From Pseudomonas delhiensis (lineage in GTDB: Bacteria > Pseudomonadota > Gammaproteobacteria > Pseudomonadales > Pseudomonadaceae), in assembly GCF_900187975.1 (NCBI RefSeq), contig NZ_FZPC01000007.1, positions 62,001-126,000 on the forward strand: a stretch of DNA of 64,000 bases, written 5' to 3'. A program made the position numbers and the translations under genes. A model generated the notes under the pieces. That model did no database searches. It was not told where the DNA came from and saw only the letters and a program-made list of their open reading frames with translations. Shown here in pieces: positions 9,280 to 64,000 of this stretch; positions within the stretch are counted from its first letter, which is position 1, and every line of letters starts with the position of its first letter.

Positions 9280-9356
9280 GCCCCGCTCCCGGCGCGAAGG
9301 CTCTGCCACGGGCCTTGCGCGCCGGCCGGCGGCATTCGCCGGGAAAAATCAGGTAG

Positions 9357-9944
<588 letters not shown>

Positions 9945-9982
9945 TCCAGCGCCTGCGCGCCGCCAGGGAAGGCGGCAATTGA

Positions 9983-10327
<345 letters not shown>

Positions 10328-10471
10328 CCCCGGCGGCTTGACAGGCCGATCGCCGGCTTCCCACAGCGCATTCGGCAACCGCGAGGCAGCGGGATTGTCT
10401 ATCCTCCCAATTCGCTCCCGTGGTTTTTCCCGGACGCCGGTCCGGGGCCACCCGACGATTCGTGAGATGCC

Positions 10472-12175
10472 ATGTCCCTGCTGAACCGCTGCTTCCATTC
10501 CCTCGCCCTCTCCTGCGGCCTGCTGCTGCTCGGCGCCGCCAGCGTCCACGCCGCCAGCCAGCCGGTGGCCCAGGCCACCGTGGCCAGCGCCCACCCGGCG
10601 GCCACCGTGGCCGGCCTGGAAACCCTCGCCGGCGGCGGCAACGCCTTTGACGCCGCGGTGGCCATCGCCGCCGCGCTGGCGGTGGCGGAGCCCTACAGCT
10701 CGGGCCTGGGCGGTGGCGGCTTCTTCCTGCTGCGCCAGGCCGGGCCGACGCCCAGCTACCGCTTCATCGACGCCCGCGAGCGCGCGCCGCTGGCCGCCAG
10801 CGCGCAGATGTACGTGCGCAACGGCAAGGTGCAGCCGGAACTGTCGCTGAACGGCCCCCTGGCCGCCGCCATTCCCGGCCTGCCCGCGGCCCTGGTGGAG
10901 CTCACCAGCCGCTTCGGCCGCAAGCCGCTGGCCGACAACCTGGTGCCGGCGATCCGCCTGGCCACCGACGGCGTCTCCGTCGACCGCATCTACATCACTC
11001 GCGCCGCCGGCCGCCTGGAGGCCATGCGCAAGGACCGCGAGACCTCGCGCATCTTCCTGCAGCAGGGCAACCTGCCCGAGGAATGGGACCTGCTGCGCCA
11101 GCCGGAACTGGCCAACACCCTGTCGCGCCTGGCGCGCTACGGCCGCAGCGGCTTCTACGAAGGCGAGACGGCGGACAAGCTGGTGCAGGGCGTGCGCGCC
11201 GCCGGCGGCATCTGGAGCCTGGAAGACCTGCGCAGCTACCAGGTGGTGGAGCGCCAGCCGCTGCGCTACCCGCTGGGCGAAGGCCGCGAGCTGGTCAGCG
11301 CGCCGCCGCCCTCGGCCGGCGGCGTGGCCATCGCCCAGAGCCTGGGCATGCTGGCCCAGCTGCCCTGGCAGAAGGCCGAGCCGATCCAGCGCGTGCACTA
11401 CGTGGCCGAAGTCCTGCGCCGCGCCTACCACGACCGCAGCATGCTCGGCGACCCCGACCGCATCGCCAACCCGGTGCAGCAACTGCTGGCCCCCGACTAC
11501 CTCAAGCGCCTGGCCGCCGGCATCGACCCGCGCCGCGCCACCCCCAGCGCCGCCCTGCCGCCGGCGCCGAGCTGGCGCGAAGGCGACCACACCACGCACT
11601 TCGTGGTGATCGACGAACAGGGCAACGCGGTGGCCGCCACCCTCTCGGTGAACCTGCCGTTCGGCGCCGCCTTCACCGCGCCCGGCACCGGCGTGCTGCT
11701 CAATGACGAAATGGACGACTTCGCCGCCGACATCCAGGGCAGCAACGCCTATGGCCTGGCCGGCAGCGCGGCCAACGCCATCGCCCCCGGCAAGCGCCCG
11801 CTGTCGAGCATGAGCCCGAGCTTCATCGAGAGCCCCGGGGAACTGGCGGCCTTCGGCACCCCGGGCGGCAGCCGCATCCCCAGCATGGTGCTGCTGGCCA
11901 TGCTGCAGTACCTGGACGGCCGCTCGGTGCAGAACTGGGTGGGCGCGCCGCGCTACCACAACCAGTACCTGCCCGACGTGCTGGAGCACGAGCCGCGCAC
12001 CTTCACCGAGGCGCAGAAGGCCGAGCTGGCCGGCCGTGGCTACAGCCTCAAGGAAGTCGCGCCCTCCTACGGCAACCAGCAGGTGCTGCTGTGGCGCAAG
12101 AAGACCGGCGACGTGGACGCCGCCAGCGACCCGCGCGGCATCGGCCTGGCCGCCGGGACCACGGTGCACTACTGA
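10472..12175 (+). CDS. ggt: Gamma-glutamyltranspeptidase precursor
   Basis: A 567-residue periplasmic Ntn-hydrolase that cleaves gamma-glutamyl bonds of glutathione. An N-terminal signal peptide ends near HAASQ (about 28). Autoprocessing would occur before Thr374 in GDHTTHFVVID, the usual catalytic Thr-Thr-His context, giving large and small subunits. Other family marks are SSGLGGGGFFLL (76-87), FIDARERAP (98-106) and the glycine loop PGGSRIPSMVL. It ends one base short of the convergent Na/Pi symporter gene. Confidence 0.95.
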   Translation: MSLLNRCFHSLALSCGLLLLGAASVHAASQPVAQATVASAHPAATVAGLETLAGGGNAFDAAVAIAAALAVAEPYSSGLGGGGFFLLRQAGPTPSYRFIDARERAPLAASAQMYVRNGKVQPELSLNGPLAAAIPGLPAALVELTSRFGRKPLADNLVPAIRLATDGVSVDRIYITRAAGRLEAMRKDRETSRIFLQQGNLPEEWDLLRQPELANTLSRLARYGRSGFYEGETADKLVQGVRAAGGIWSLEDLRSYQVVERQPLRYPLGEGRELVSAPPPSAGGVAIAQSLGMLAQLPWQKAEPIQRVHYVAEVLRRAYHDRSMLGDPDRIANPVQQLLAPDYLKRLAAGIDPRRATPSAALPPAPSWREGDHTTHFVVIDEQGNAVAATLSVNLPFGAAFTAPGTGVLLNDEMDDFAADIQGSNAYGLAGSAANAIAPGKRPLSSMSPSFIESPGELAAFGTPGGSRIPSMVLLAMLQYLDGRSVQNWVGAPRYHNQYLPDVLEHEPRTFTEAQKAELAGRGYSLKEVAPSYGNQQVLLWRKKTGDVDAASDPRGIGLAAGTTVHY

Positions 12176-12176
12176 G

Positions 12177-14042
12177 TCAGGGCACCAGCAGCGGCGACGC
12201 CTCGTCGGCGGCGCGCTCGGGCAGGGCGCCGTCCAGGCCCTGCTCGATGCGCAGCTGCAACACGTTGCGCAGGCTCTGCACGATACGGCTGGCGTAGCCC
12301 AGGTCGTTCATCAGCGAGCTGGTCCGGGCGCCGTCCAGCTCATGGCGGCGCACCGCGGCGAACAGGTGGTTGCGGAAGGCGCCGTCGAACTGCGCGGCCT
12401 GCTCGTCGAACAGCGCCAGGCGCGCGGCCCAGGCGCCTTCCGGTAGCTGGCGGGGGTCCAGGGCGCCGATGGCGCGAACCTCGCGCAGCGCGCCCAGCAG
12501 GTGGCGGCGCAGTTCCAGGTAGCAGTCCCGCGCCACCGAAGGCTCGCCCTGCAGGGCCGCGCCCAGGTTCTTCTGCAGGTGCTTGGCGTCCTTCACCGCG
12601 TCCACCAGTTGCAGCGCCGCCACCTGGCAGGCCATCCAGAAATGCTGATGGGCCTCGTCCAGCGGCGTCTCCAGGCGCCCCATGAAGCTCAGCAGGTCGC
12701 CGTACACGCCCTTGATGTGCTGCTGGTAGAGCGCCTGGGCGTCCATGGCGAAGCGCTCCGGCCCCGCCTGCAGGGCGGCCTCGTCCACCTTCGGCTGGTT
12801 GAGCAGGTCCACCGGCAGGTAGAGCGCGTGGCAGATCACCTCGATGCTCAGGCGCCCCAGGTGCTGCAGCTCCTGGGTCACCGCGCTGGCGGCGGCGTCC
12901 GCCGAGTCCAGGGCGCGCTCGCTGAGGTAGCGCGCATGGGTACGCTCCGGCAGTGGCGCCGCCGTCGCCGGGGCCAGGTCGGTGATCAGCACCGAAGGTT
13001 CCTCCACGTCCGGCAGCCAGCGGATCAGCCACTGCGCCAGGCGCGTCTGCAGCGGCCAGAACAGCAGCACGCCCATGCCGTTGAACAGGGTGTGGAACAG
13101 CGCCAGCTGGATCAGCAGGTTGTCGCCCAGGCCGACCTGGGCGGTCAGCCAGCGCACCAGCCAGGTCAGCGGCGCCAGCAGGGCGAAGGCGAGCACCCCG
13201 CTGACCAGGTTGAACAGCACGTGGGCCAGGGCCAGGCGCTGGCCGTTGCGGTTGCCGCCCAGGGAGCCGACGAAGGCGGTGGTGACGCTGCTGCCGACGT
13301 TGGAGCCGATGGCGATGGCCAGGCTCTGGCCCAGCTCCAACTGGCCGCCGGCCAGGGCCGCCAGAGTCAGCATCAGGGTGGCATGGCTGGACTGCAGCAC
13401 CACGGTGATCAGGGTGCCGATGCCGACGAACAGCAAGGCCCCCGGCACACCCTCGGCCTGCAGGCCGGTCATGTCCAGGGCGTCGCCGAAGCTGGAGAAG
13501 CCGTCCTTGATCTGGTCGATGCCCAGGAAGATGAAGGCGATGCCCATGAGGATGCGCCCGGCGGCCTTGCTCTTCGGCCCGTTGAAGCCGGCCAGCACGC
13601 CGAACACCAGCAGCGGCAGGGCCAGGGGGCTGAGGCTCAGGTTCTGCCCGGCCAGGGCCAGCAGCCAGATGCCGCTGGTGGCGCCGAGGTTGGCGCCGAA
13701 GAGAATGGCGATGCCACTGGCCAACTGGATCAGCCCGGTGCTGATGAAGGCGATGGTGAGCAGCGAGACCAGGGTGCTGGACTGCAGCACGAAGGTGCCG
13801 CACAGGCCGAACAGCAGGCTCTTGGACGGTGTCGAGGTGCTGCGTTCGAGCCACAGCTCCAGTTGGCTGCCGGCCAGGTCGCGCAGGCCCTCCTCCAGGC
13901 ACTGCATGCCGAACAGGAACAGCGCCAGGCCCGCGCCCAGCTGCAGCAACCCGGCGCTGGACCAGAAGGCGTAGCCGAGCACGCCCGCCGCCAGCAGCAG
14001 GAGCAGCGGGCGCAGGTGCTTCTTCAATTCGCTACGGGCCAT
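12177..14042 (-). CDS. Na+/phosphate symporter family protein with PhoU-like C-terminal domain
   Basis: A 621-residue inner-membrane protein of the NptA/PhoU-fusion type. The N-terminal half has eight or more membrane segments and the duplicated QSS signatures, LQSSTLVSLL (about 106-115) and LQSSHATLML further on, that define the PF02690 family. The C-terminal 250 residues are soluble and helical, PhoU-like. The substrate is probably phosphate, driven by sodium, though homologs can work in efflux. It is convergent with ggt, leaving a one-base gap, so neither has its own terminator in the gap. Confidence 0.9.
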   Translation of the reverse strand: MARSELKKHLRPLLLLLAAGVLGYAFWSSAGLLQLGAGLALFLFGMQCLEEGLRDLAGSQLELWLERSTSTPSKSLLFGLCGTFVLQSSTLVSLLTIAFISTGLIQLASGIAILFGANLGATSGIWLLALAGQNLSLSPLALPLLVFGVLAGFNGPKSKAAGRILMGIAFIFLGIDQIKDGFSSFGDALDMTGLQAEGVPGALLFVGIGTLITVVLQSSHATLMLTLAALAGGQLELGQSLAIAIGSNVGSSVTTAFVGSLGGNRNGQRLALAHVLFNLVSGVLAFALLAPLTWLVRWLTAQVGLGDNLLIQLALFHTLFNGMGVLLFWPLQTRLAQWLIRWLPDVEEPSVLITDLAPATAAPLPERTHARYLSERALDSADAAASAVTQELQHLGRLSIEVICHALYLPVDLLNQPKVDEAALQAGPERFAMDAQALYQQHIKGVYGDLLSFMGRLETPLDEAHQHFWMACQVAALQLVDAVKDAKHLQKNLGAALQGEPSVARDCYLELRRHLLGALREVRAIGALDPRQLPEGAWAARLALFDEQAAQFDGAFRNHLFAAVRRHELDGARTSSLMNDLGYASRIVQSLRNVLQLRIEQGLDGALPERAADEASPLLVP

Positions 14043-14086
14043 GGCCCCCTCGGGAAGGGCGCGCCGGCATCACCGGCGCGGCAGGG

Positions 14087-14428
14087 TCAGTCCTGCTTGT
14101 AGCCGCTTTCGGTGCAACCCAGGCAGCGCACGAAGGTGGCCTTGCCCGGGTCCACCACCAGGGCCTGGCCGGCTTCCTTGACGTTGCCGCCCAGGGCGGT
14201 GAACGGCAGGCTGACGATGAAGGCCGCGGTGCCGATCACGGTGGCGCCCAGCAGCAGCGGGCGGGCGATGATCAGGTCGCCGAGCATCTTGTAGAACGGC
14301 GGCGAGTTGGTGCTGTAGATCGGGTCCCCGCTGGAGGTGTTGCTGATCGCGTCGGAGGCCTGGGCGGGAACGGCCGACAGGCCGAGGGTCAGGGCCAGAA
14401 CGACGGCCAGGGCGCGGAACAGGTTCAT
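14087..14428 (-). CDS. Small exported/membrane protein, conserved in Pseudomonas
   Basis: A 113-residue protein with a signal peptide ([20 protein letters not shown], cleavage near AQAS) and one hydrophobic segment at about 55-77. It ends with a conserved-looking [15 protein letters not shown] tail containing a CxxC pair. Homologs are often loosely labelled multidrug transporter without evidence, so I assign no function. A possible hairpin terminator (GCGCCGG-N5-CCGGCGC, 14061-14079) lies between it and the symporter gene. Confidence 0.75.
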
Positions 14429-14513
14429 GGCGTAAATCCTTTTTCATGCTGGGTTGGCAGGCAGACTGCCATTAACTATATCAGCGCGACAGGGCTTGTC
14501 AGCGTGATGGCCA

Positions 14514-15092
14514 TCAACCGCCGAGGAAGGCGTATGCCGGCTTGCGCGGTACGAAGGGGCGGTAGAAGGCCAGCATCCGCCCCAGGTCGGCCGCTTCGTC
14601 GCCGCTGGGCCAGAACGGCTCGCCGATGACGATGCGCCGGTTGCCGTAGTCCAGCGCGGCCAGCACCACCGGAACCCCGGCGCCGCGGGCGATGTGGTAG
14701 AAGCCCATCTTCCAGCGCTCGACCTTCTTGCGCGTGCCCTCGGGGGAGATGATCAACATCATCTCGCGGCTGTCGCGGAAGGCCTGCACCGCCTGGTCCA
14801 CGGTGTTCAGCCTGAGGTGGCGCCGGATCGGGATGCCGCCCCAGCGCCGCAACAGGCCGCCGAAGGGCCGGCGGAACAGGGTGTGCTTGGCGAACCAGCG
14901 GGCGTTCAGGCGCAGCACGAACTTGGCCGCCAGGAACAGCATGAAATCCCAGTTGGAGGTGTGGTGCGCGCCTATCACCACGAACTTGTCCAGGGCCGGC
15001 AGCGCGCCCTCGATGCGCCAGCCGGCGATTCTCAGCATGCTGCGGCCGAGCCACTCGGCGAAAGGGTTGGGGGGCAGGTAGTTGCCGGACAT
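14514..15092 (-). CDS. PlsC-like 1-acyl-glycerol-phosphate acyltransferase family protein
   Basis: A 192-residue acyltransferase of the glycerolphosphate acyltransferase superfamily. The catalytic HxxxxD motif is HHTSNWD at about residues 53-59 (His and Asp spaced as in PlsC), and the substrate-binding SPEGTRKK lies near 132-139. It is shorter than canonical PlsC, as in the YihG/PlsC-like group. It probably acylates a lipid precursor at the inner membrane; acceptor unknown. Confidence 0.85.
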   Translation of the reverse strand: MSGNYLPPNPFAEWLGRSMLRIAGWRIEGALPALDKFVVIGAHHTSNWDFMLFLAAKFVLRLNARWFAKHTLFRRPFGGLLRRWGGIPIRRHLRLNTVDQAVQAFRDSREMMLIISPEGTRKKVERWKMGFYHIARGAGVPVVLAALDYGNRRIVIGEPFWPSGDEAADLGRMLAFYRPFVPRKPAYAFLGG

Positions 15093-15129
15093 CGATGGAC
15101 CTTCTTGTTGTTATGGGTGCAGGACATGG

Positions 15130-52960: not shown

Positions 52961-53368
52961 TCAGGGCTGCACGATCAGGTTGTTGAACAGCAGATCGTCC
53001 ACCAGTGGCTTCCCTTCCTCTTCTTTGAGGACCGTCTGTACCTGCTTGAGCGCCTCCTGGCGCAGTTTCTCCTTGGCCTCGACGCTGCCGAGGGTCTCGT
53101 CGGTCTGCTGGGCGAACAGCATGATCAACTGGTTGCGGATCAGCGGCTCGTGGTGCTCGACCTTCTCCTCGGCCTCCTTGCCGGTGACCTTCAGGGCGAT
53201 ATCGGCCTTGTAGTACTTCAGCTTCGGCCCGCTGCCGTAGTTGCCGACCAGGGCCGGGGTGAGGTCGACGAACAACGGCTTGTTGGCGTCTTCCGGCTTG
53301 GCTTCCTCTTCCGAGGCCATCACGGGGGCGAGGAACAGCATCAGGGTCAGGGCGATCAGGGCTTTCAA
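52961..53368 (-). CDS. Orphan FliL-domain exported protein
   Basis: A 135-residue protein with an N-terminal hydrophobic signal (KALIALTLMLFLAPVMA-SEE) and a FliL-like domain: FVDLTPALVGNYGSGPKLKYYKADIALKV ... ALKQVQTVL ... LLFNNLIVQP. Start is taken as TTG 53368 because GGAGAA lies six bases upstream; no ATG gives a sensible signal peptide. FliL stabilises flagellar stators, but no flagellar gene is nearby, so this is a stand-alone paralog of unknown role. Confidence 0.8.
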   Translation of the reverse strand: MKALIALTLMLFLAPVMASEEEAKPEDANKPLFVDLTPALVGNYGSGPKLKYYKADIALKVTGKEAEEKVEHHEPLIRNQLIMLFAQQTDETLGSVEAKEKLRQEALKQVQTVLKEEEGKPLVDDLLFNNLIVQP

Positions 53369-53527
53369 GGCGACTTCTCCATGCACGATGCCGGCAAGCA
53401 TAGCCATACCGGGCGCGCGGCCCAAGCCCGGCGGTTATGCAGCGGCATAAGCCGGGACCATACTGATTTGCCCTCCGCCCTACCACTCCTACACTGCCGG
53501 GCATTACACGAAAGGAGTACACCCCCG

Positions 53528-54835: not shown

Positions 54836-56359
54836 TCAGGCGTACAGCTGCTTGAAGCGCTCGCGCAGCTGGTTCTTCTGCACCTTGCCCATCACGTTGC
54901 GCGGCAGCGCGTCCACGAACACCACCCGCTTGGGTTGCTTGTAGCGCGCCAGATGACCGTCCAGGCCGGCGAGGATATCCGCCTCGCTCGGCGCCTCGCC
55001 GGGCCTGGCCACCACCACCGCCGTCACGCCTTCGCCGAAGTCGCGGTGCGGCAGACCTATCACTGCCGACTCGGCCACGCCGGGCAGGGTGTCGATGATC
55101 TGTTCCAGCTCCTTCGGGTACACGTTGTAGCCGCCGCTGATGATCATGTCCTTGCTGCGCCCGACGATCTGCACGTAGCCCTTGTCATCGATGAAGCCGA
55201 TGTCGCCGGTCATGAAGAAGCCGTCGCCGCGCAGTTCCTCGGCGGTCTTCTCCGGCATGCGCCAGTAGCCGCGGAACACGTTGGGGCCGCGCACCTCGAT
55301 CATCCCCGGCTCGCCTTGCGGCAGCAGCTTCGCCTCCTTCTCGGCCGGGTCGGTGATGCGCAACTCCACGCCCGGCAGCGGGAAGCCGACGGTGCCGGCG
55401 ATGCGCTCGCCATCAAGCGGGTTGGAGGTGTTCATGCCGGTTTCGGTCATGCCGTAGCGCTCGAGGATGGCCACCCCGGTGCGCTCGCGGAAGGCCTTGT
55501 GGGTCTCGGCGGTGAGCGGCGCCGAGCCGGAGACGAACAGGCGCATGTGCGCCACCGCCTCGCGGGTCAGCCCCGGTTGGTCGAGCAGGCGGGTGTAGAA
55601 GGTCGGCACGCCCATCAGCAGGTTCACCTGGGGCAGCAGGCCCAGCACTTGCGCGGCGTCGAACTTGTCCACGTAGAGCAGCGAACCGCCGGCCATCAGC
55701 AGGCTGTTGATGGCCACGAACAGGCCGTGGATGTGGAAGATCGGCAGCGCGTGCAGCAGCCAGTCGGCGCGGGTGATGCCCCAGGCCTCGACCAGCGCGC
55801 GGGCGTTGGAGACCAGGTTGCCGTGGCTGATCATGGCGCCCTTGGAGCGCCCGGTGGTACCGGAGGTGTAGAGGATGGCGGCGAGGTCGTCGCGGCTGCG
55901 CGCGACGTCGGCGAAGCGCGCCGGCTTGCCTTCCACGTGGCGCATCAGGCTGCCTTCGCAGTGCTGCCCGAGGGTCGCCACGCGGGCCACGCCGCACTGT
56001 TCGGCCAGTGCCTTGGCCTGCTCCTCGAAGGCCGGGGTGCAGACGAACAGCGAGGGTTCGGCGTCGCCGAGGAAGTAGCTCAGCTCGTCGCTGGTGTAGC
56101 CGCTGTTCAGCGGCAGGTAGACGGCGCCGGCGCGCAGGGTGCCGAGGTAGAGCATGATCGCCTCGGGGCTCTTGTCCACCTGCACGGCGACGCGGTCGCC
56201 CGGCTGCACGCCCAGTTCCACCAGGGCGTGGGCGAACTGCGCGCTGCTGCGCAGCATCTCGGCATAGCTGTAGCCGCCGCCATCCGGGGTGCGGAGGAAG
56301 GGCTTGTTGAGGTCTTCGGGCAGGTGCTCGCCGACGGCGGCGAAAAGGCTCTGGTTCAT
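54836..56359 (-). CDS. matB: Malonyl-CoA synthetase
   Basis: MatB activates malonate with ATP and CoA to malonyl-CoA. The 507-residue ANL enzyme has AMP-binding motifs ILYTSGTTGRSKGAMISHGN (about 160-179), RYGMTETGMNTSNP and the hinge region GFFMTGDIGFIDDKGYVQIV. Motif wording matches malonyl-CoA synthetases rather than long-chain acyl-CoA ligases. Eight bases after matA in the same operon, which strongly supports the specificity. Confidence 0.9.
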   Translation of the reverse strand: MNQSLFAAVGEHLPEDLNKPFLRTPDGGGYSYAEMLRSSAQFAHALVELGVQPGDRVAVQVDKSPEAIMLYLGTLRAGAVYLPLNSGYTSDELSYFLGDAEPSLFVCTPAFEEQAKALAEQCGVARVATLGQHCEGSLMRHVEGKPARFADVARSRDDLAAILYTSGTTGRSKGAMISHGNLVSNARALVEAWGITRADWLLHALPIFHIHGLFVAINSLLMAGGSLLYVDKFDAAQVLGLLPQVNLLMGVPTFYTRLLDQPGLTREAVAHMRLFVSGSAPLTAETHKAFRERTGVAILERYGMTETGMNTSNPLDGERIAGTVGFPLPGVELRITDPAEKEAKLLPQGEPGMIEVRGPNVFRGYWRMPEKTAEELRGDGFFMTGDIGFIDDKGYVQIVGRSKDMIISGGYNVYPKELEQIIDTLPGVAESAVIGLPHRDFGEGVTAVVVARPGEAPSEADILAGLDGHLARYKQPKRVVFVDALPRNVMGKVQKNQLRERFKQLYA

Positions 56360-56367
56360 GGCGGTTC

Positions 56368-57669
56368 CTAGCGGCGGGGCTTGGCCGGTGGGGCGAGATG
56401 TCGCTTGACCTCGTTGGCGGCGATCACCGTGCCCTGGTTGGCGTAGGCTTCGTGGTTTTTCTCGATCTGACGCAATTCGTAGCGGTAGTTGACCATCAGC
56501 CCGGCGGCCTGGCGCAGGCCGCCGGCGGAGAGGTCGCCGCGCCAGTTCAGGCGCTCCAGGCGGGCGCCGTTGCCCAGGTGGAAGCGCGCCACCGGGTCCG
56601 GCGGCAGGCCCTGGTCGTTCTTGGCCTGCAGGAAGTATTCGGCGGCCAGCGCCAGCAGCGGCTGTTCAAGGCGCGGGGCCGGCGACGCGTCGGGCTTGAG
56701 CGCCTTCAGGCATTCGGCGACCTCGGGGCGCCCGGCCTGGCTGTCGAGCCAGCGGCGGAAACCGGGCACCGGCGAGAGGGTGACGTACTGCTTGAGGCCG
56801 GGCACTTCGCGGGCCAGTTCCTCCACCACCTGCTTGATCAGGAAGTTGCCGAAGGAGATGCCGCGCAGGCCTTCCTGGCAGTTGCTGATGGAGTAGAACA
56901 CCGCGGTGTCCGGCGCATCGGCGGCCTCGCCGGGTTGTTCGAGGATTTCGGCGATGGCGGCGGGCATCTGCCGGGTCAGCGCCACCTCGACGAAGATCAG
57001 CGGCTCCTCCGGCAGCGCCGGGTGGAAGAACGCGAAGCAGCGGCGGTCGGCCGGCTGCAGGCGGCTGCGCAGGTCGTCCCAGTCCTTGATGGCGTGCACC
57101 GCTTCGTAGCGGATGATCTTTTCCAGGATCGCCGCCGGGGTCGACCAGTCGATGCGCCGCAGAACCAGGAAGCCGCGGTTGAACCAGGAGGCCAGCAGGT
57201 GCTGCAGGTCGTGGTCCACCGCCGCCAGTTGCGGCCGCGCCTTGAGCTCCTGCAGCAGCAGGCGGCGCATGGCGATCAGTTCGGCGGTGCCGCCGGGGGC
57301 CTGGTTGAGGCGACGGAACAGCTCCTGGCGCGGCGGCTCGCAGGCCTCGAACAGCGCGGTGACCTGCTCCGCGCCGGGGTTTTCCAGGTAGCGCCGGCAG
57401 GCGTCGGCCAGGGCCTCGGCGGGCGGTGCGAAATCGTTGAGCAGGTTGTCGAAGAAGGCCTTCTGCTGCTCCGGCGGGCAGTCGCGGTAGGCGCACAGCA
57501 CCTGCCGCGCCAGGGCCACGCCGGAGGCCTCGCCGTGGCCGGAGAGCAGGCGGCGGCTGGCCTCCACCAGCGACGCCGCGCTGATCGGCACCGGCTCGCG
57601 GGACTCCAGCAGCTGGCGGCCGCGTTCGCTGATGCTCTGCAGCAGTTCCTGGAAGAAGCTGACGTTCAT
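56368..57669 (-). CDS. matA: Malonyl-CoA decarboxylase
   Basis: MatA (MCD family) decarboxylates malonyl-CoA to acetyl-CoA and CO2. The 433-residue protein has the helical N-domain and the GNAT-like catalytic C-domain: YEAVHAIKDWDDLRSRLQPA, RCFAFFHPALPEEPLIFVEV, FYSISNCQEGLRGISFGNFL, TLSPVPGFRRWL, and ARFHLGNGARLERLNWRGD. The HPALP/EEPL and SPVPGF blocks hold the catalytic Ser/His region of the family. ATG 57669 follows AGGAGGTTCG. Confidence 0.95.
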   Translation of the reverse strand: MNVSFFQELLQSISERGRQLLESREPVPISAASLVEASRRLLSGHGEASGVALARQVLCAYRDCPPEQQKAFFDNLLNDFAPPAEALADACRRYLENPGAEQVTALFEACEPPRQELFRRLNQAPGGTAELIAMRRLLLQELKARPQLAAVDHDLQHLLASWFNRGFLVLRRIDWSTPAAILEKIIRYEAVHAIKDWDDLRSRLQPADRRCFAFFHPALPEEPLIFVEVALTRQMPAAIAEILEQPGEAADAPDTAVFYSISNCQEGLRGISFGNFLIKQVVEELAREVPGLKQYVTLSPVPGFRRWLDSQAGRPEVAECLKALKPDASPAPRLEQPLLALAAEYFLQAKNDQGLPPDPVARFHLGNGARLERLNWRGDLSAGGLRQAAGLMVNYRYELRQIEKNHEAYANQGTVIAANEVKRHLAPPAKPRR

Positions 57670-57692
57670 CGAACCTCCTTCTTCGGCGCGCC

Positions 57693-59150
57693 TCACTGCG
57701 CCAGCAGCGGCGGCGGGCAGCGCCGGTACCATTGGGTGGCCTGCTCGTAGGCATGGGCCAGTTGCAGCACGGCCATGTCGGCCTGGTGCCGGCCGATGAT
57801 CTGCAGGCCCATGGGCAGGCCCTGTTCATTGAAGCCTACCGGCACGTTGGCGACGGGGCATCCGGACAGGGTGCCGGGGATCACCACTTCCATCCAGCGG
57901 TGATAGGTGTCCATGGCGCGGCCGGCGACTTCCTTCGGCCAGTGCAGGTGCTTGTCGAAGGGGAACACCTGGGCGCTGGGCAACAGCAGGTAGTCGTAGC
58001 GCTCGAACAAGCGCTGGATGGCGCGGTACCAGTCGCTGCGCGCCACCGTGGCCTGGAACACCTCCATGGCCGACAGGCGCAGGCCGTTCTCCACTTCCCA
58101 GCAGGCCTCTTCCTTGAGCAGCGCGCGCTTGGCCGGGTCGGCGTAGGCGGCGCCCAGGGAGCCGGCGACGAACCAGTGGCGCAGGGTGCGCCAGCAGTCC
58201 CACAGGCGTTCGGCGGGGAAGCCCAGCTCGCAGGGCTCGACCTCGCAGCCGATGGCCTGGAAGTCGGCGAACGAGCGCTGGCACAGCTCCAGCACGCCGC
58301 GCTGCATGGCCAGGTGGCCGCCGAGGTCGCCCAGCCAGCCCAGGCGCGCGCCCTTGAAGTCGCGCTCCAGCGGGCCGGCGAAGGCCTTGCCGGATTCGGC
58401 GATGGACAGCGGCGCACGGGCGTCCGCCCCGGCCTGCACCGACAGCAGCAGGGCCACGTCGCGCACGCTGCGGCCCATGGGGCCTTCGTAGCCGAGCTGG
58501 TCGCAGAACAGGTCGGCGGCGTCGTCGAAGGGCACGCGGCCCTGGGACGGACGGAAGCCGACGATGTTGTTGAACGCCGCCGGGTTGCGCAGCGAGCCCA
58601 TCATGTCGCTGCCGTCGGCCACCGGCACCAGTTGCAGGGCCAGGGCCGCCGCCGCGCCGCCGCTGCTGCCGCCGGCGGTGCGGGCCGGGTCGTAGGCGCA
58701 GCCGGTGGCGCCGAACAGCGGGTTGTAGCTCTGCGAGCCGAGGCCGAATTCCGGGGTGTTGCTCTTGCCGATGAGGATGGCGCCGGCGGCGCGGATGCGC
58801 TCGACCATGATGCCGTCGCGCTCGGGCACGTAGTCGCGGTACAGCGGCGAACCCAGGGTGGTGCGGATGCCGCGGGTCAGCGACAGGTCCTTGATGGCGT
58901 GGGGCATGCCGTGCATCCAGCCGCGGTATTCGCCGCGGGCCAGCTCGGCGTCGCGCGCGTCGGCCTGGGCCAGCAGCGCTTCGGCCGGCTGCAGGCTGAC
59001 CAGGGCGTTGACCGCCGGGTTGAAGCGCTCGATGTGCGCCAGGTAGTCGCCCATCACCTCGCGGCAGGAGACCTGGCGCAGGCGGATGAGCTGCGCCAGT
59101 TCGTGGGCCTGGAGCTGGACGAGGGGGCTGATATTCGGGTTCTGGCTCAT
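57693..59150 (-). CDS. Amidase-signature family hydrolase (putative malonamidase/ureidomalonase-like)
   Basis: A 485-residue amidase-signature enzyme. The catalytic triad is intact: Lys87 in PHAIKDLS, cis-Ser162 in AGGSSGG and nucleophile Ser186 in GSDMMGSLRNPA. The intervals of 75 and 24 residues match the family. The fold hydrolyses linear amides. Clustering 23 bases upstream of matA-matB suggests that it releases malonate from an amide such as malonamate or ureidomalonate. The exact substrate is inference; alternatives include any polyamine- or amino-acid-linked malonyl amide imported by the transporter. Confidence 0.88.
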   Translation of the reverse strand: MSQNPNISPLVQLQAHELAQLIRLRQVSCREVMGDYLAHIERFNPAVNALVSLQPAEALLAQADARDAELARGEYRGWMHGMPHAIKDLSLTRGIRTTLGSPLYRDYVPERDGIMVERIRAAGAILIGKSNTPEFGLGSQSYNPLFGATGCAYDPARTAGGSSGGAAAALALQLVPVADGSDMMGSLRNPAAFNNIVGFRPSQGRVPFDDAADLFCDQLGYEGPMGRSVRDVALLLSVQAGADARAPLSIAESGKAFAGPLERDFKGARLGWLGDLGGHLAMQRGVLELCQRSFADFQAIGCEVEPCELGFPAERLWDCWRTLRHWFVAGSLGAAYADPAKRALLKEEACWEVENGLRLSAMEVFQATVARSDWYRAIQRLFERYDYLLLPSAQVFPFDKHLHWPKEVAGRAMDTYHRWMEVVIPGTLSGCPVANVPVGFNEQGLPMGLQIIGRHQADMAVLQLAHAYEQATQWYRRCPPPLLAQ

Positions 59151-59303
59151 GTGACGCGGCCTTTCTCTGGGTTCCCGCGTTCGCGGGAATGACGGAACAG
59201 TTCAGGGGATATCGCTTTCGACGGGGTGAGCGAAGCCACGGCGCCTCGCGGCGCCCTGCCCCACCCCGTCACCCCCGCGGACGCGGGGGCCCAGCGCCTT
59301 CGG
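59151..59303. repeat. GTTCCCGCGTTCGCGGGAAT-type repeat pair
   Basis: GTTCCCGCGTTCGCGGGAAT (about 59171-59190) and an inverted GTCACCCCCGCGGACGCGGG (about 59270-59289), bracketing a GGGGTGAGC...GCCCCACCCC palindrome. This is a widespread intergenic repeat type. The pair fills the 153-base gap between the binding-protein gene and the amidase gene within the operon and may act as a processing or attenuation site. Confidence 0.65.
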
Positions 59304-60338
59304 TCAGCGCATCAGGTTGGTCCACAGGCGGTCGGCCAGGCGGATGGCGCCCTCGCCGCAGGTCTTGCTGAAGACCACCTTGGTGCCCTCGGGGATGTGT
59401 AGCTCGGGCGCATCCTTCAGGCTCGGGTCGAGGAAGGCGTCGGTGCCCTTGATCGGGCTCTGGTGCTTGAGGAAGTTCTGGGTGATCGCCGAGTTCTCCG
59501 GCTGGCTCATGAAGGCGATGAACTGCCGGGCCGCCTCGGGGTTCTTGCTGCCCTTGGGGATCACCAGGTTGTCCACCCAGGCCATCACGCCTTCCTTGGG
59601 GTACAGGTACTTCAGGCTCGGTTTCATTTCCCGGGCGCGCAGCGAGGAACCGCCCCAGAACAGCGACATGGAGGTCTCGCCAGAAGCGAGGTTCTCGCGC
59701 ACCGAGCCGGCCTTGGAGCTGTACGTCTTGACGAAGGGCTTCTGCGCCTTGAGCAGGTTCAGCACCTGCTGCACCTGTTTCGGGTCCTCGCTGCACAGCG
59801 GCACGCCCAGGTACAGGCTGGCGGTGTCCATCACCTCGTTGACCGAGTCGAGCATGTTGATCTTGCCCTGCAGCTCCTGCGGCGGCTGGAACAGTAGCGA
59901 GTAGCTGTCGGCCGGGCCCTTGTAGGTGGCGGTGTCGTAGACCACGCTGGTGGTGCCCCAGATGAAGGGCACCGAGTAGCCGCCCTGCGGGTCCCAGGTG
60001 GGTTTGCGCAGGTTGTCCTCGATGTTCGCGTAGTACGGCTGCTTGATCGGGTCGAAGCGCTCCAGCAGGTTCTCGTGGACCAGGATGGGCACGAACTGGT
60101 GCGAGGGGATGGCCACGTCGTAGCCGCTGCCGCCCTGCTTGAGCTTGGCCAGCAGGGTCTCGTTGGAATCGTAGGAATCCACCGTGACCTTGATGCCGGT
60201 CTGCTTCTCGAACTTCTCCAGGATCTGCGGCGAGAAGTAGCCGCTCCAGCTGATGACGTTGACCTGGCCGGCGGCGTTGGCCGCGCCGGCCAGGCCCAGC
60301 GACAGGGTGGCGGCGATGACTGCGATCGACTTGCTCAT
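59304..60338 (-). CDS. Polyamine-type ABC substrate-binding protein (PotD/PotF-like)
   Basis: A 344-residue periplasmic binding protein. Signal peptide MSKSIAVIAATLSLGLAG-AANA; mature start QVNVISWSGYFSPQILEKFEKQTGI is the PotD/PotF type, with YDVAIPSHQFVPIL and FIWGTTSVVYDTATY. It supplies substrate to the two permeases encoded just upstream. The family binds polyamines but also opines, glycine betaine-like and other amines, so family membership does not fix the ligand. Confidence 0.9.
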   Translation of the reverse strand: MSKSIAVIAATLSLGLAGAANAAGQVNVISWSGYFSPQILEKFEKQTGIKVTVDSYDSNETLLAKLKQGGSGYDVAIPSHQFVPILVHENLLERFDPIKQPYYANIEDNLRKPTWDPQGGYSVPFIWGTTSVVYDTATYKGPADSYSLLFQPPQELQGKINMLDSVNEVMDTASLYLGVPLCSEDPKQVQQVLNLLKAQKPFVKTYSSKAGSVRENLASGETSMSLFWGGSSLRAREMKPSLKYLYPKEGVMAWVDNLVIPKGSKNPEAARQFIAFMSQPENSAITQNFLKHQSPIKGTDAFLDPSLKDAPELHIPEGTKVVFSKTCGEGAIRLADRLWTNLMR

Positions 60339-60363
60339 GTTGACTCCCGTAGTGGCGTGGCGC

Positions 60364-61170
60364 TCAGGCCTTGGCTTTGCCGAGCAGGTAGGAAAGGCTG
60401 ACGAAGAACACGGATACCCCGAGGATCAGCGTCGACACCGCGTTGACGTCGGGGGTGACGCCCATCCGCAGCAGGCCGAAGATGAAGATCGGCAAGGTGG
60501 TGGTGCCGGCCTGGGAGACCATCATCGAGATCACGAAGTTATCCAGCGAGACGATGAAGGCCAGCATCAGCCCGGAGAAGATCCCCGGCATCAGCAGCGG
60601 CAGGGTGACCTTGCGGAAGGTCCGCCAGGGCCCGGCGTAGAGGTCGGCGGCGGCCTGCTCCAGGGACAGGTCCATGTCCTCCAGGCGGGCGCGGATCGGC
60701 AGGTAGGCGAAGGGGATGCAGAACACCGTGTGGGCGATGATCAGGTTGCCATAGCCCAGCGACACACCGAGGCTGGAGAACAGCGCCAGGGTGGCGACGC
60801 CGACCACGATCTCCGGCAGCACCAGCGGCAGCATGATGGTGCCCATGGACAGGCGCATGCCCTTGAACTTCGCCCCGCGCGAGGTGCCCAGCGCGGCCAG
60901 GGTGGCGATGGCGGTGGCGATCGCGCTGGCGCACACGGCGATCAGCAGGCTGTTGCCGGCCGCGCTGCGCAGCGCCTGGTTGGCGAAGGCGGCGCGGTAC
61001 CAGTCGAGGCTGAAGCCGGTCCACACGGTGGCGGACTGGTTGGCGTTGAACGAGTAGATCACCAGCACCACGATGGGCGCGTAGAGGTACAGGTAGAACA
61101 GCAGGCTGAAACCGCCGAAGCCGGGGAAGTCCTGCACGCCGAGACGGCGCTTGCGCAACAGGGCCAGCAT
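60364..61170 (-). CDS. ABC transporter permease (PotC-like)
   Basis: A 268-residue permease with six membrane helices and the EAA-type loop EQAAADLYAGPWRTFRKVTLP (about 163-183). It is the second permease of the polyamine-type importer. ATG 61170 overlaps the stop of the preceding permease by one base; the GTG one codon upstream is also possible. Confidence 0.92.
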   Translation of the reverse strand: MLALLRKRRLGVQDFPGFGGFSLLFYLYLYAPIVVLVIYSFNANQSATVWTGFSLDWYRAAFANQALRSAAGNSLLIAVCASAIATAIATLAALGTSRGAKFKGMRLSMGTIMLPLVLPEIVVGVATLALFSSLGVSLGYGNLIIAHTVFCIPFAYLPIRARLEDMDLSLEQAAADLYAGPWRTFRKVTLPLLMPGIFSGLMLAFIVSLDNFVISMMVSQAGTTTLPIFIFGLLRMGVTPDVNAVSTLILGVSVFFVSLSYLLGKAKA

Positions 61171-62096
61171 CACACACCTCCCCGGGCCACGCGCAGGCGC
61201 TCGGCGCGCATGGCGTAGAAGGTCAGGGCGAGCATCACCGCTGCCATCAGCACCAGCGACAGGGCGGCGCCGAAGGGCCAGTTACGGGCGTCGGCGAACT
61301 GCCGGAAGATCAGGTTGCCGAGCATCATCTTGGTGCCGCCGCCGAGCAGCTCGGGGGCGATCATCGCGCCCAGGCAGGGCACGAAGGTGAGGATGGCGCC
61401 GGCCAGGATGCCCGGCCGGGCGATCGGCAGGACCACCTTGCGCAGGGTGCGCAGGCGCCCGGCGTAGAGGTCCTGGGCGGCTTCCAGCAGGCGCATGTCC
61501 ATCTTCTCCAGGGTCGAATAGATCGGCAGCACCACGAAGGGCGCGTAGGTGTAGACCAGGCCCAGCAGCACCGCGCCGTCGCTGTACAGCAGCGGCAGCG
61601 GCTGGTGGATCAGGCCCAGGCCCATGAGGCCGTTGTTGATCACCCCGGTGCCGCGCAGCAGGAGGATCCAGGCGTAGGTTCGGATCAGCAGGTTGGCCCA
61701 GAACGGCACGGTGATCAGGAAGATCAGCAGGCCGCGCCGGCTGGCCGGCTGCATGGCCAGCCACACCGCCACCGGGAAGCCCACCAGCAGGGTGATGGCG
61801 GTGGTGGCCGCGGCGATGCCCAGCGAGCGCAGGGCGATGACCAGGTAGGAATCGGCGAAGGCCAGGCTGTCGTCCAACTGGCGCTCGAACAGCAGCGAGA
61901 CGTAGGCGTCGCTGCTGAACACGTGGTTGACGCCGCCATAGGGGTTGGCCTGCATCAGCGAGTAGGCGACGACGATGAGGATCGGCACCACCAGGAACAG
62001 GCCGATGGCCAGCAGCGCCGGCGATACGCCGAGCAGGTTGCCCAGGGCCCGGCGCCGCTCCAGGGCGTTGCCGGGGCGTACGGTGAGGGAAGACAT
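61170..62096 (-). CDS. ABC transporter permease (PotB-like)
   Basis: A 308-residue permease with six membrane helices and EAA loop LLEAAQDLYAGRLRTLRKVVLP (about 203-224). It is the first permease of the importer, 15 bases after the ATPase gene and translationally coupled to the PotC-like gene. Confidence 0.92.
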   Translation of the reverse strand: MSSLTVRPGNALERRRALGNLLGVSPALLAIGLFLVVPILIVVAYSLMQANPYGGVNHVFSSDAYVSLLFERQLDDSLAFADSYLVIALRSLGIAAATTAITLLVGFPVAVWLAMQPASRRGLLIFLITVPFWANLLIRTYAWILLLRGTGVINNGLMGLGLIHQPLPLLYSDGAVLLGLVYTYAPFVVLPIYSTLEKMDMRLLEAAQDLYAGRLRTLRKVVLPIARPGILAGAILTFVPCLGAMIAPELLGGGTKMMLGNLIFRQFADARNWPFGAALSLVLMAAVMLALTFYAMRAERLRVARGGV

Positions 62097-62111
62097 GGCG
62101 CGCTCCTCGGC

Positions 62112-63230
62112 TCAGTCCAGCAGGACGCTGGCGCTGTCGCGGTCGAACTGCAGGCCCAGGCGCTCGCCCGGGGCGAAGCGCTGGCTCTGCCCGGCGCTGT
62201 TGGGCGTGCGCACGCGCAGGCGGGTGCCATCGGCGAGGCTGACCTGGTACTGCAGGTCGGTGCCCAGGTAGATCTGCTCGGCGAGGGTGCAGGGCGTGGC
62301 CTGCGGGTCCTCGGCGCCGACCAGGCGCAGGCGCTCGGGGCGGATCGACAGCGTCACCTCGGCGCCCGGGCGCAGGCCCTCGCGGCTCGCCGCGCGCAGC
62401 GTGCGGCCGCCGGGGATGCGGAACAGCGCCTGGCCGCCGGCGATCTCGTCGACCTGCGCCGGGAGGAAGTTGGTCTCGCCGATGAAGTCGGCGACGAAGC
62501 GGTTGCGCGGCTGCTCGTAGATGTCCGCCGGGCGCCCGACCTGCTGCACCTCGCCCTCGGCCAGCACGGCGATGCGGTCGGACATGGTCAGGGCTTCTTC
62601 CTGGTCGTGGGTGACGAAGATGAAGGTGATCCCGGTCTTGGCCTGGATCGCCTTGAGTTCCTCGCGCATGGCCTGGCGCAGCTTCAGGTCCAGGGCCGAG
62701 AGCGGCTCGTCGAGCAGCAGCACCTTGGGGTGCGGGGCCAGCGCGCGGGCCAGGGCCACGCGTTGCTGCTGGCCGCCGGAAAGCTGGGTGGGGCGGCGTT
62801 CGGCGAAGCGCTCCATCTGCACCAGGGCGAGCATCTCGCGCACCCGCCCGGCGACCGCCGCCTTGCCCAGGCGCTGGCCCATGGGGTGCGATTCCAGGCC
62901 GAAGGCCAGGTTCTGCGCGATGGTCATGTGCGGGAACAGCGCGTAGTGCTGGAACACCGTGTTGACCGGGCGATCGTAGGGCGCGCGGTCGGCGATGTTC
63001 TCGCCGTAGAGGAGGATCTCGCCGGCGGTGGGGAACTCGAAGCCGGCGATCATCCGCAGCAGGGTGGTCTTGCCGCAGCCGGAGGGCCCGAGCAGGGTGA
63101 AGAATTCGTTGTCGCGGATGTCCAGGTCGACGCTCTTCAGCGCCACCGGGCCGCTGTCCGGGTCGCCGTAGACCTTGCGCACCGATCGAATGGAGACGGC
63201 GGCCGTCTGCAGGCCGTGCAGGGCACTCAT
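62112..63230 (-). CDS. ABC transporter ATPase (PotA-like)
   Basis: A 372-residue ATPase: Walker A GPSGCGKTT (about 49-57), Q-loop in VFQHYALFPHM, signature LSGGQQQRVALARAL, Walker B VLLLDEPLSALD, H-loop FVTHDQEEA, then a TOBE domain typical of PotA/CUT2-like importers. ATG 63230 has GGAGGTACATCC upstream. The frame's in-phase extension to 63473 lies in AT-rich promoter DNA and is rejected. It heads the nine-kb malonate-type operon. Confidence 0.93.
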   Translation of the reverse strand: MSALHGLQTAAVSIRSVRKVYGDPDSGPVALKSVDLDIRDNEFFTLLGPSGCGKTTLLRMIAGFEFPTAGEILLYGENIADRAPYDRPVNTVFQHYALFPHMTIAQNLAFGLESHPMGQRLGKAAVAGRVREMLALVQMERFAERRPTQLSGGQQQRVALARALAPHPKVLLLDEPLSALDLKLRQAMREELKAIQAKTGITFIFVTHDQEEALTMSDRIAVLAEGEVQQVGRPADIYEQPRNRFVADFIGETNFLPAQVDEIAGGQALFRIPGGRTLRAASREGLRPGAEVTLSIRPERLRLVGAEDPQATPCTLAEQIYLGTDLQYQVSLADGTRLRVRTPNSAGQSQRFAPGERLGLQFDRDSASVLLD

Positions 63231-63380
63231 GGATGTACCTCCGGTTCCCTCCCCCGCTGGCGCGGTGCGCGCGGAGGCTTGTACTTGTTGTGGCAGGAAT
63301 GGGGAAAGCGCTGCAGCGTGTGCCGGTGACCGGCTGGTTTTGTGGTGAGGCTGCTGGGGCCGAGTGTGGCCAGATTGCAG

Positions 63381-63397
63381 TTGAGCAAAAAGCTCAA
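63381..63397. promoter_or_regulatory. LysR operator candidate
   Basis: TTGAGC-AAAAA-GCTCAA is a perfect 6-5-6 palindrome in the AT-rich divergent region, 150 bases upstream of the ATPase start and 48 bases upstream of the LysR start. It is a suitable recognition site for the LysR regulator. The region 63395-63430 is the most AT-rich of the divergent gap and probably holds the promoters. Confidence 0.6.
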
Positions 63398-63444
63398 TTT
63401 TCTTACATTCGCTATTAAATAAATTAACAGCCTGCGAGCCGCCC

Positions 63445-64000
63445 ATGTCCCTGCCCCGTCTGCCGCCGCTCAACGCCGTGCGTGCCTTCGAGGCGGCGGC
63501 GCGCCTGGGCAGCTACGTCGCCGCCTCGAAGGCGCTGCACGTCACCCAGCCGGCCATCGGCCGCCACGTGCGCCTGCTGGAGGACTGGCTGGGCGTGCAG
63601 CTGCTGGAGCGCACGCCGCGGGGGGTCAGCCTGACGCCCGCCGGCCAGCGCTACTACGCGAAGATAGCCACGGCGCTGCAGCAGATCGCCGAGGCCAGCC
63701 GCGAACTGGCCCCCGGCGGCTCGGCGCGCTGGCTGAAGATCCTGGTGGTGCCGGCCTTCGCCAAGCGCTGGCTGATGCCGCACCTGGAAGCCCTGCGCCA
63801 GCAGCGTCCGGGGCTGAAGGTGGCGATCGAGCCGAACCCGACCTTCACCGAGGTGGACGGCAACAGCGCCGACCTGGGCATCGTCTACGGCATGCCCGGG
63901 CAGTACCCGCAGAGCTGCGCCACCCTGCTCCACCCGCAGGTATTCCCGGTGTGCTCGCCGGCCTACCTGGCGGCCCACGGCCCGCTGGGCAGCGCCGAAG
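63445..64000 (+). CDS. LysR-family regulator, GcvA-like (3' end outside window)
   Basis: The first 185 residues of a LysR regulator. The winged HTH spans 1-62: LPPLNAVRAFEAAARLGSYV and LHVTQPAIGRHVRLLEDWLG. The effector domain begins near 95 (LKILVVPAFAKRWLMPHL). The wording is of the GcvA type, which usually activates adjacent amino-acid or amine catabolic genes. It is divergent from the importer-amidase-mat operon and probably controls it. The gene runs off the right edge. Confidence 0.9.
   Translation, partial: MSLPRLPPLNAVRAFEAAARLGSYVAASKALHVTQPAIGRHVRLLEDWLGVQLLERTPRGVSLTPAGQRYYAKIATALQQIAEASRELAPGGSARWLKILVVPAFAKRWLMPHLEALRQQRPGLKVAIEPNPTFTEVDGNSADLGIVYGMPGQYPQSCATLLHPQVFPVCSPAYLAAHGPLGSAE

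What the first reader, a model, noticed from the sequence alone, without database searches (positions are those of the whole stretch)
54836..63230. Importer-amidase-MatA-MatB operon: a putative pathway for an amide of malonate
One minus-strand operon encodes a full polyamine-type ABC importer (ATPase, two permeases, binding protein), an amidase-signature enzyme with a complete Lys87-Ser162-Ser186 triad, malonyl-CoA decarboxylase and malonyl-CoA synthetase, under a divergent LysR gene. Spacings of 1-25 bases (one 153-base gap) support co-transcription. Known chemistry: MatB makes malonyl-CoA from malonate and MatA gives acetyl-CoA. Inference: the amidase supplies malonate from an imported amide such as malonamate, ureidomalonate or a malonylated amine. 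The pairing with a PotABCD-like importer instead of a malonate carrier is the unusual part. I know of no described system with this exact set, but cannot search.
Basis: partly seen in the sequence, partly recalled or inferred. Interest (0 to 1): 0.8.

Follow-up and report, generated by a model that had tools for sequence, protein, structure and literature searches.

The report
Importer and amidase feeding malonate breakdown
A Pseudomonas carries one gene cluster that probably imports an as yet unknown amide, cuts it, and burns the malonate released; the same importer-amidase pair recurs in many Pseudomonas species with either of two interchangeable malonate-degrading systems, which gives a testable function to genes now labelled polyamine transporter.

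Summary
The operon is real: ABC ATPase, two permeases, binding protein, amidase-signature enzyme, MatA and MatB, behind a divergent LysR gene. It recurs. In 398 Pseudomonadaceae genomes an orthologous amidase occurs in 52, always 33-220 bp from the orthologous binding-protein gene (52 of 52). MatA follows directly in 24 of 52. Of the 28 without MatA, 26 carry the other malonate enzyme, malonate decarboxylase (mdcA), plus the carrier MadM; only 3 of the 24 with MatA do. Two genomes (G026, G423) have neither route, and the link outside the family is weak. At one chromosomal site the operon exists with and without MatAB. In PA7 the operon's LysR gene is followed directly by mdcA. Related amidases in four other places on the family tree also lie beside matAB, madLM or mdcA. 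So malonate as the amidase product is well supported by genomics; no chemistry is shown. The conserved core is importer plus amidase; MatAB is one of two exchangeable modules. The binding protein has the polyamine-receptor fold with an altered pocket, one change of it specific to this group. The imported amide is unknown; malonamate or an N-malonyl amine fits best. Malonamidase E2 is the nearest precedent, only distantly related. New variant of a known kind.

The parts
63445..64000 (+). divergent LysR-type regulator, cut by the window end (300 aa in L082)
   Evidence: PF00126 + PF03466; orthologue beside the same operon in L002-L014, L016, L017, L038, L142, L152 and L155-L158
63381..63427 (.). 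possible LysR operator: TTAATTTATTTAA (63415-63427, T-N11-A) and palindrome TTGAGC-N5-GCTCAA (63381-63397)
   Evidence: T-N11-A element present at the aligned place in the 23 intergenic regions compared; the palindrome exact in 7 of 23 (window, L002-L006, L155), one mismatch in L009 (sequence); binding not tested
62112..63230 (-). ABC importer ATPase, PotA-like (372 aa)
   Evidence: PF00005 + PF08402; TIGR01187 361.8 bits against cut-off 355.6 (longer frame 62112-63473)
61170..62096 (-). ABC permease, PotB/PotH-like (308 aa)
   Evidence: PF00528; PotB model 216 bits, below its cut-off 348
60364..61173 (-). ABC permease, PotC/PotI-like (269 aa)
   Evidence: PF00528; PotC model 227 bits, below its cut-off 326
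59304..60338 (-). periplasmic binding protein of PotD/PotF fold (344 aa) with an altered pocket
59151..59303 (-). 153-bp gap that folds strongly, including palindrome TTCCCGCGAACGCGGGAA
   Evidence: -84.5 kcal/mol, z -3.2; with up to 3 mismatches the palindrome occurs at this one place in the window
57693..59150 (-). amidase-signature hydrolase, PRK07486 subfamily (485 aa)
   Evidence: NF005686 810 bits against cut-off 465; triad K87-S162-S186 invariant in 39 aligned members; AF2 pLDDT 92.4
56368..57669 (-). MatA, malonyl-CoA decarboxylase (433 aa)
   Evidence: PF05292 4e-100 and PF17408 4e-26 (query began one codon late); one PF05292 match in the genome
54836..56359 (-). MatB, malonyl-CoA synthetase (507 aa)
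   Evidence: NF005702 808 bits against cut-off 558

Best explanation
The operon is a scavenging pathway for a malonyl amide. The binding protein captures the amide in the periplasm and the ABC importer brings it in. The amidase hydrolyses it to malonate plus ammonia or an amine. MatB makes malonyl-CoA and MatA decarboxylates it to acetyl-CoA. The LysR protein controls the unit. Importer plus amidase is the conserved core; malonate disposal is a plug-in module, MatAB in the operon here, Mdc (with MadLM) in other pseudomonads. Shown by sequence: gene content, order, conservation, exchange of modules. Inferred: substrate class, direction of flow, regulation. Best guess for the ligand: malonamate, or a small N-malonyl amine or amino acid.
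Against: G026 and G423 have the operon but neither MatA nor mdcA nor MadM. Outside the family the link is weak: in 249 genomes across the phylum 13 of 29 amidase genomes have MatA, 5 of them within 5 kb (4 are the window's genome and three of its genus); without Pseudomonadaceae 9 of 25 against 32 of 215, p 0.02. Of the 62 loci without this ABC operon only 6 show a malonate gene in their flanks; 23 have an M20-hydrolase/MFS context. The pocket changes E36 and D168 are shared by binding proteins outside this group. The P. aeruginosa MdcR iModulon is described as mdc plus madLM, without the amidase operon (passage in PMC10943186). Malonamidase E2 is not the closest relative: aryl acylamidase 190.7 bits, malonamidase E2 about 69. 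Counts are not corrected for shared ancestry. No biochemical data.
Confidence: 0.7

Rival explanations
1. The ABC system imports malonate itself, and the amidase is a side activity for related amides. The operon is then a mat operon with an ABC importer in place of MatC.
For: 21 of 24 genomes with MatA beside the amidase lack MadM. PotD-fold proteins can bind small carboxylates such as GABA (4eq7, 8jv1). The pocket lost acids and gained a histidine.
Against: 26 of the 28 operon genomes without MatA have MadM besides the importer, so the importer is not simply a substitute for it. The amidase has the importer's binding protein beside it in 52 of 52 genomes, which fits an amide better than malonate. 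Two acids of the amine site remain.
Confidence: 0.13
2. The importer carries polyamines or an acylated polyamine and the amidase removes an acyl group; the malonate genes are neighbours without a metabolic link.
For: Closest solved structures are PotF, SpuD, SpuE, PotD and kin; a review's table lists PA0203 and PA0205 as polyamine transport homologues (passage in PMC9397018). E171, D257 and the two tryptophans of the amine site are largely kept, and the losses at E36 and D168 also occur in homologues outside the group.
Against: PotD Y293 is H in 19 of 19 rows at 63% identity or more and Y in 36 of 36 more distant rows; E36 is G in 19 of 19. The link to malonate genes recurs at separate places on the tree.
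Confidence: 0.1
3. Ureidomalonate from barbiturate breakdown is the substrate, the amidase being a ureidomalonase.
For: Ureidomalonase yields malonate and urea (recalled chemistry).
Against: None of the neighbour genes that I had annotated is a barbiturase; barbiturase was not searched for in whole genomes, so this is thin.
Confidence: 0.04

Closest known systems
mat operon of rhizobia (MatA, MatB, carrier MatC)
   Same: MatA and MatB, malonate to acetyl-CoA; MatA, MatB and MatC are named together for Rhizobium leguminosarum (passage in PMC3333776)
   Different: no MatC-type carrier in this operon; an ABC importer and an amidase stand upstream; LysR regulator instead of the GntR-type MatR (recalled)
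mdc-madLM malonate decarboxylase cluster
   Same: the alternative malonate module; in PA7 mdcA follows this operon's LysR gene
   Different: unrelated enzymes; in P. aeruginosa assigned to MdcR (passage in PMC10943186). The window's genome also holds mdcA and madM, on contig C17
Malonamidase E2 of Bradyrhizobium japonicum
   Same: amidase-signature fold; makes malonate from malonamate
   Different: 25% identity over 405 aligned residues; other amidases are closer in sequence
PotFGHI / SpuDEFGH / PotABCD polyamine importers
   Same: binding-protein fold and subunit make-up
   Different: changed ligand pocket; binding protein 140-160 bits against PotD and PotF equivalog cut-offs of 582 and 636

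Membership tests
mat-type malonate operon | MatA (malonyl-CoA decarboxylase) | tested here: met
   PF05292 4e-100, PF17408
mat-type malonate operon | MatB (malonyl-CoA synthetase) | tested here: met
   NF005702 808 bits, cut-off 558
mat-type malonate operon | MatC dicarboxylate carrier in the operon | tested here: not met
   no such gene among the seven; the operon is followed by a quinone oxidoreductase gene and preceded by LysR, fre-like, ubiD and rho genes; MatC elsewhere in the genome not tested
Malonamidase E2 | amidase-signature fold with Lys, cis-Ser, Ser triad | tested here: met
Malonamidase E2 | close sequence kinship | tested here: not met
   3e-18 over about 206 residues against 4e-55 for aryl acylamidase
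Malonamidase E2 | hydrolysis of malonamate | not testable with these tools
   needs an enzyme assay
Polyamine importer (PotABCD, SpuDEFGH) | PotD/PotF-fold binding protein with PotA-type ATPase and two permeases | tested here: met
Polyamine importer (PotABCD, SpuDEFGH) | carboxylates that hold the ligand's amines (PotD E36, D168, E171, D257; site list recalled) | tested here: inconclusive
   E36 and D168 lost, E171 and D257 kept as E or D; the two losses are also common in homologues outside the group whose ligands are unknown
Barbiturate pathway (ureidomalonase) | barbiturase in the genome | not tested
   no call made

The most novel reading that the evidence does not exclude
Pseudomonads, and some other proteobacteria with other transporters, own a dedicated system for scavenging N-malonyl conjugates, such as the malonylated amines, amino acids or xenobiotics that plants store (recalled), and burn the malonyl half through whichever malonate module the genome holds. 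In P. aeruginosa PA0202-PA0206, now labelled amidase and polyamine-type transporter, would be this system.
Probability: 0.27. Interest if true: 0.75.

Novelty: new variant of a known kind. Interest (0 to 1): 0.52.

Why it matters
It proposes a testable role for an importer-amidase unit found in 52 of 398 Pseudomonadaceae genomes, whose parts are listed as polyamine transport in the one review seen. The swap of two unrelated malonate enzyme systems behind one conserved uptake unit is a natural experiment that points to the intermediate. If right, malonyl amides are a nutrient for these bacteria, and the annotation of the P. aeruginosa PA0202-PA0206 genes should change.

Tried and rejected
Polyamine import as the main role: fold met, pocket changed, but the pocket argument is weaker than I first wrote. 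One search counted one 52% homologue (P0081) among the operon-type rows; the recount uses 19 rows at 63% or more and 36 more distant rows. It shows that only Y293 to H separates the groups cleanly; E36 is G in 19 of 19 near rows but also in 19 of 36 distant ones, and D168 is kept in none of the 55. I raised the polyamine rival from 0.08 to 0.1 for this and set that membership row to inconclusive. Malonamidase E2 membership: only distant. MatA as an essential part: absent in 28 of 52 operon genomes, 26 of which have mdcA. A universal malonate role for the PRK07486 amidase family: not supported, 23 of 80 loci have an M20-hydrolase/MFS context, and other neighbours include a copper amine oxidase in Variovorax. 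MatB-like hits of 28-31% in L019, L047, L050 were not counted as MatB. Promoter scan: 0 sites, 0.5 expected; terminators 5 found, 4.0 expected. PA14 locus tags in two papers were exbB1/exbD1 or an unnamed gene, no use. Passages of three P. aeruginosa papers on malonate or LysR proteins showed mdc genes but nothing on this operon (PMC6506614, PMC11419262, PMC10926688).

Literature: no functional assignment of this operon seen in ten searches of the held library, judged from listings and passages. Most subscription papers are not held, so this is no proof of absence. The malonamidase E2 structure paper is not held.

Limits: Fisher values ignore relatedness. The amidase tree is a quick one with long branches. 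Several loci are cut by contig ends. Of the Mdc subunits only MdcA was searched in loci and genomes. Barbiturase, MatC and other malonate carriers were not searched in whole genomes. Genomes overlap.
Full report
What is there. Seven minus-strand genes at 54836-63230 follow a divergent LysR gene. Gaps are 15, -4, 25, 153, 23 and 8 bp. The 153-bp gap folds strongly (z -3.2), which could set different mRNA levels for binding protein and amidase; that is inference.

Is it conserved? Of these 80, 5 (L002-L006) carry the whole operon with MatAB at 75-93% identity; 12 (L007-L017, L038) carry importer and amidase without MatAB, one of them (L015) cut by the contig end before its ATPase and LysR genes; L018 has LysR and amidase only; 62 have the amidase in other settings. 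In 398 Pseudomonadaceae genomes drawn evenly from the family, the orthologous amidase (E up to 1e-225) is in 52; the binding-protein orthologue sits 33-220 bp away on the same strand in 52 of 52; a MatA domain sits 522-546 bp from it in 24 of 52. MatB was not searched in this sample.

The swap. mdcA, the alpha subunit of malonate decarboxylase, occurs in 229 of 398 genomes. Among the 52 amidase genomes it is in 3 of 24 with MatA and 26 of 28 without. The malonate carrier MadM is in the same 29 of 52. So 50 of 52 amidase genomes have MatA or mdcA, against 201 of 346 without the amidase (p 5.5e-9, not corrected for relatedness). The exceptions are G026 and G423. In the loci sample mdcA is over cut-off in 13 of 13 genomes holding L007-L018 and L038 and in 0 of 5 holding L002-L006. 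The operon of L152, L155 and of the MatAB carriers lies at the same site, between rho-ubiD-fre and a quinone oxidoreductase gene, with MatAB present or absent at its 3' end; L156 shares the quinone oxidoreductase side only. L155's genome (G124) has mdcA; L152's (G423) has not. In PA7 (L142) the LysR gene ends at 14978 and the mdcA frame opens at 15080-15127, same strand, followed by a CitG-family gene, mdcB by recall. The three genomes with both modules include the window's own, whose mdcA and madM lie on contig C17, with a second amidase of 63% identity about 4 kb from mdcA in a porin-M20-MFS-amidase row.

Other lineages. Six of the 62 other loci hold malonate genes in their flanks (up to 10 kb; queries MatA, MatB, MadL, MadM, MdcA): L028, L045, L056, L059, L069, L078. 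On a quick tree of 91 amidases they fall in four places apart from the window's clade (L056; L028 with L045; L078; L059 with L069), so the link is either old or repeatedly made. The four with matB have no mdcA over cut-off. Across 249 genomes of the phylum, outside Pseudomonadaceae, 9 of 25 amidase genomes have MatA against 32 of 215 others (p 0.02), and only one (G498) has it within 5 kb. The amidase family as a whole is therefore not a malonate family; the window's clade is tightly tied to malonate.

Regulation. The LysR-ATPase region keeps a T-N11-A element in the 23 sequences compared, and an exact 17-bp palindrome in 7 of 23. In P. aeruginosa the MdcR iModulon is described as mdc and madLM (passage in PMC10943186), so the importer-amidase unit may answer to its own LysR and its own inducer; that is inference.

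What is known in print. PA0203 and PA0205 are listed among polyamine transport homologues (table in PMC9397018); PA0202-PA0205 appear in a list of down-expressed genes (table in PMC5605626). That PA0202-PA0206 in PAO1 is the orthologous unit next to mdcA is recalled and fits the PA7 layout; I did not fetch PAO1. No paper found in the held library assigns a substrate (searches listed under Tried and rejected).

Verdict. The exact amide, and the whole chemistry, remain to be shown.

Noticed in passing
L143 (G000 C17:1-17552), 9239-14732: A second amidase (63% identical) in the window's genome follows a porin, an M20 hydrolase and an MFS carrier and lies about 4 kb from mdcA; the 23 other loci with this M20-MFS-amidase row showed no malonate gene in the flanks held.
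   Followed up: partly
window 59151-59303: Gap between binding protein and amidase that folds strongly and holds a perfect REP-like palindrome TTCCCGCGAACGCGGGAA, the only such place in the window.
   Followed up: partly
L144 (G026), 8894-14811: In G026 the amidase is followed by an Amidohydro_3 enzyme, a C45-type acyltransferase/hydrolase and an OprD porin, and neither MatA nor mdcA was found: perhaps a variant for another amide. Its kind of binding protein also differs at PotD positions Y37 and D257.
   Followed up: partly
L064, 6351-11443: In Variovorax a related amidase follows a copper amine oxidase and an AraC regulator, suggesting amides of amines as substrates in that branch.
   Followed up: no
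window 52961-53425: A short FliL-like reading frame stands here, judged by eye only.
   Followed up: no
L018, 8952-12913: Pseudomonas sp. T1-3-2 shows LysR and amidase without the importer genes in the 21 kb held, followed by a Fic-domain gene; it has mdcA elsewhere.
   Followed up: no
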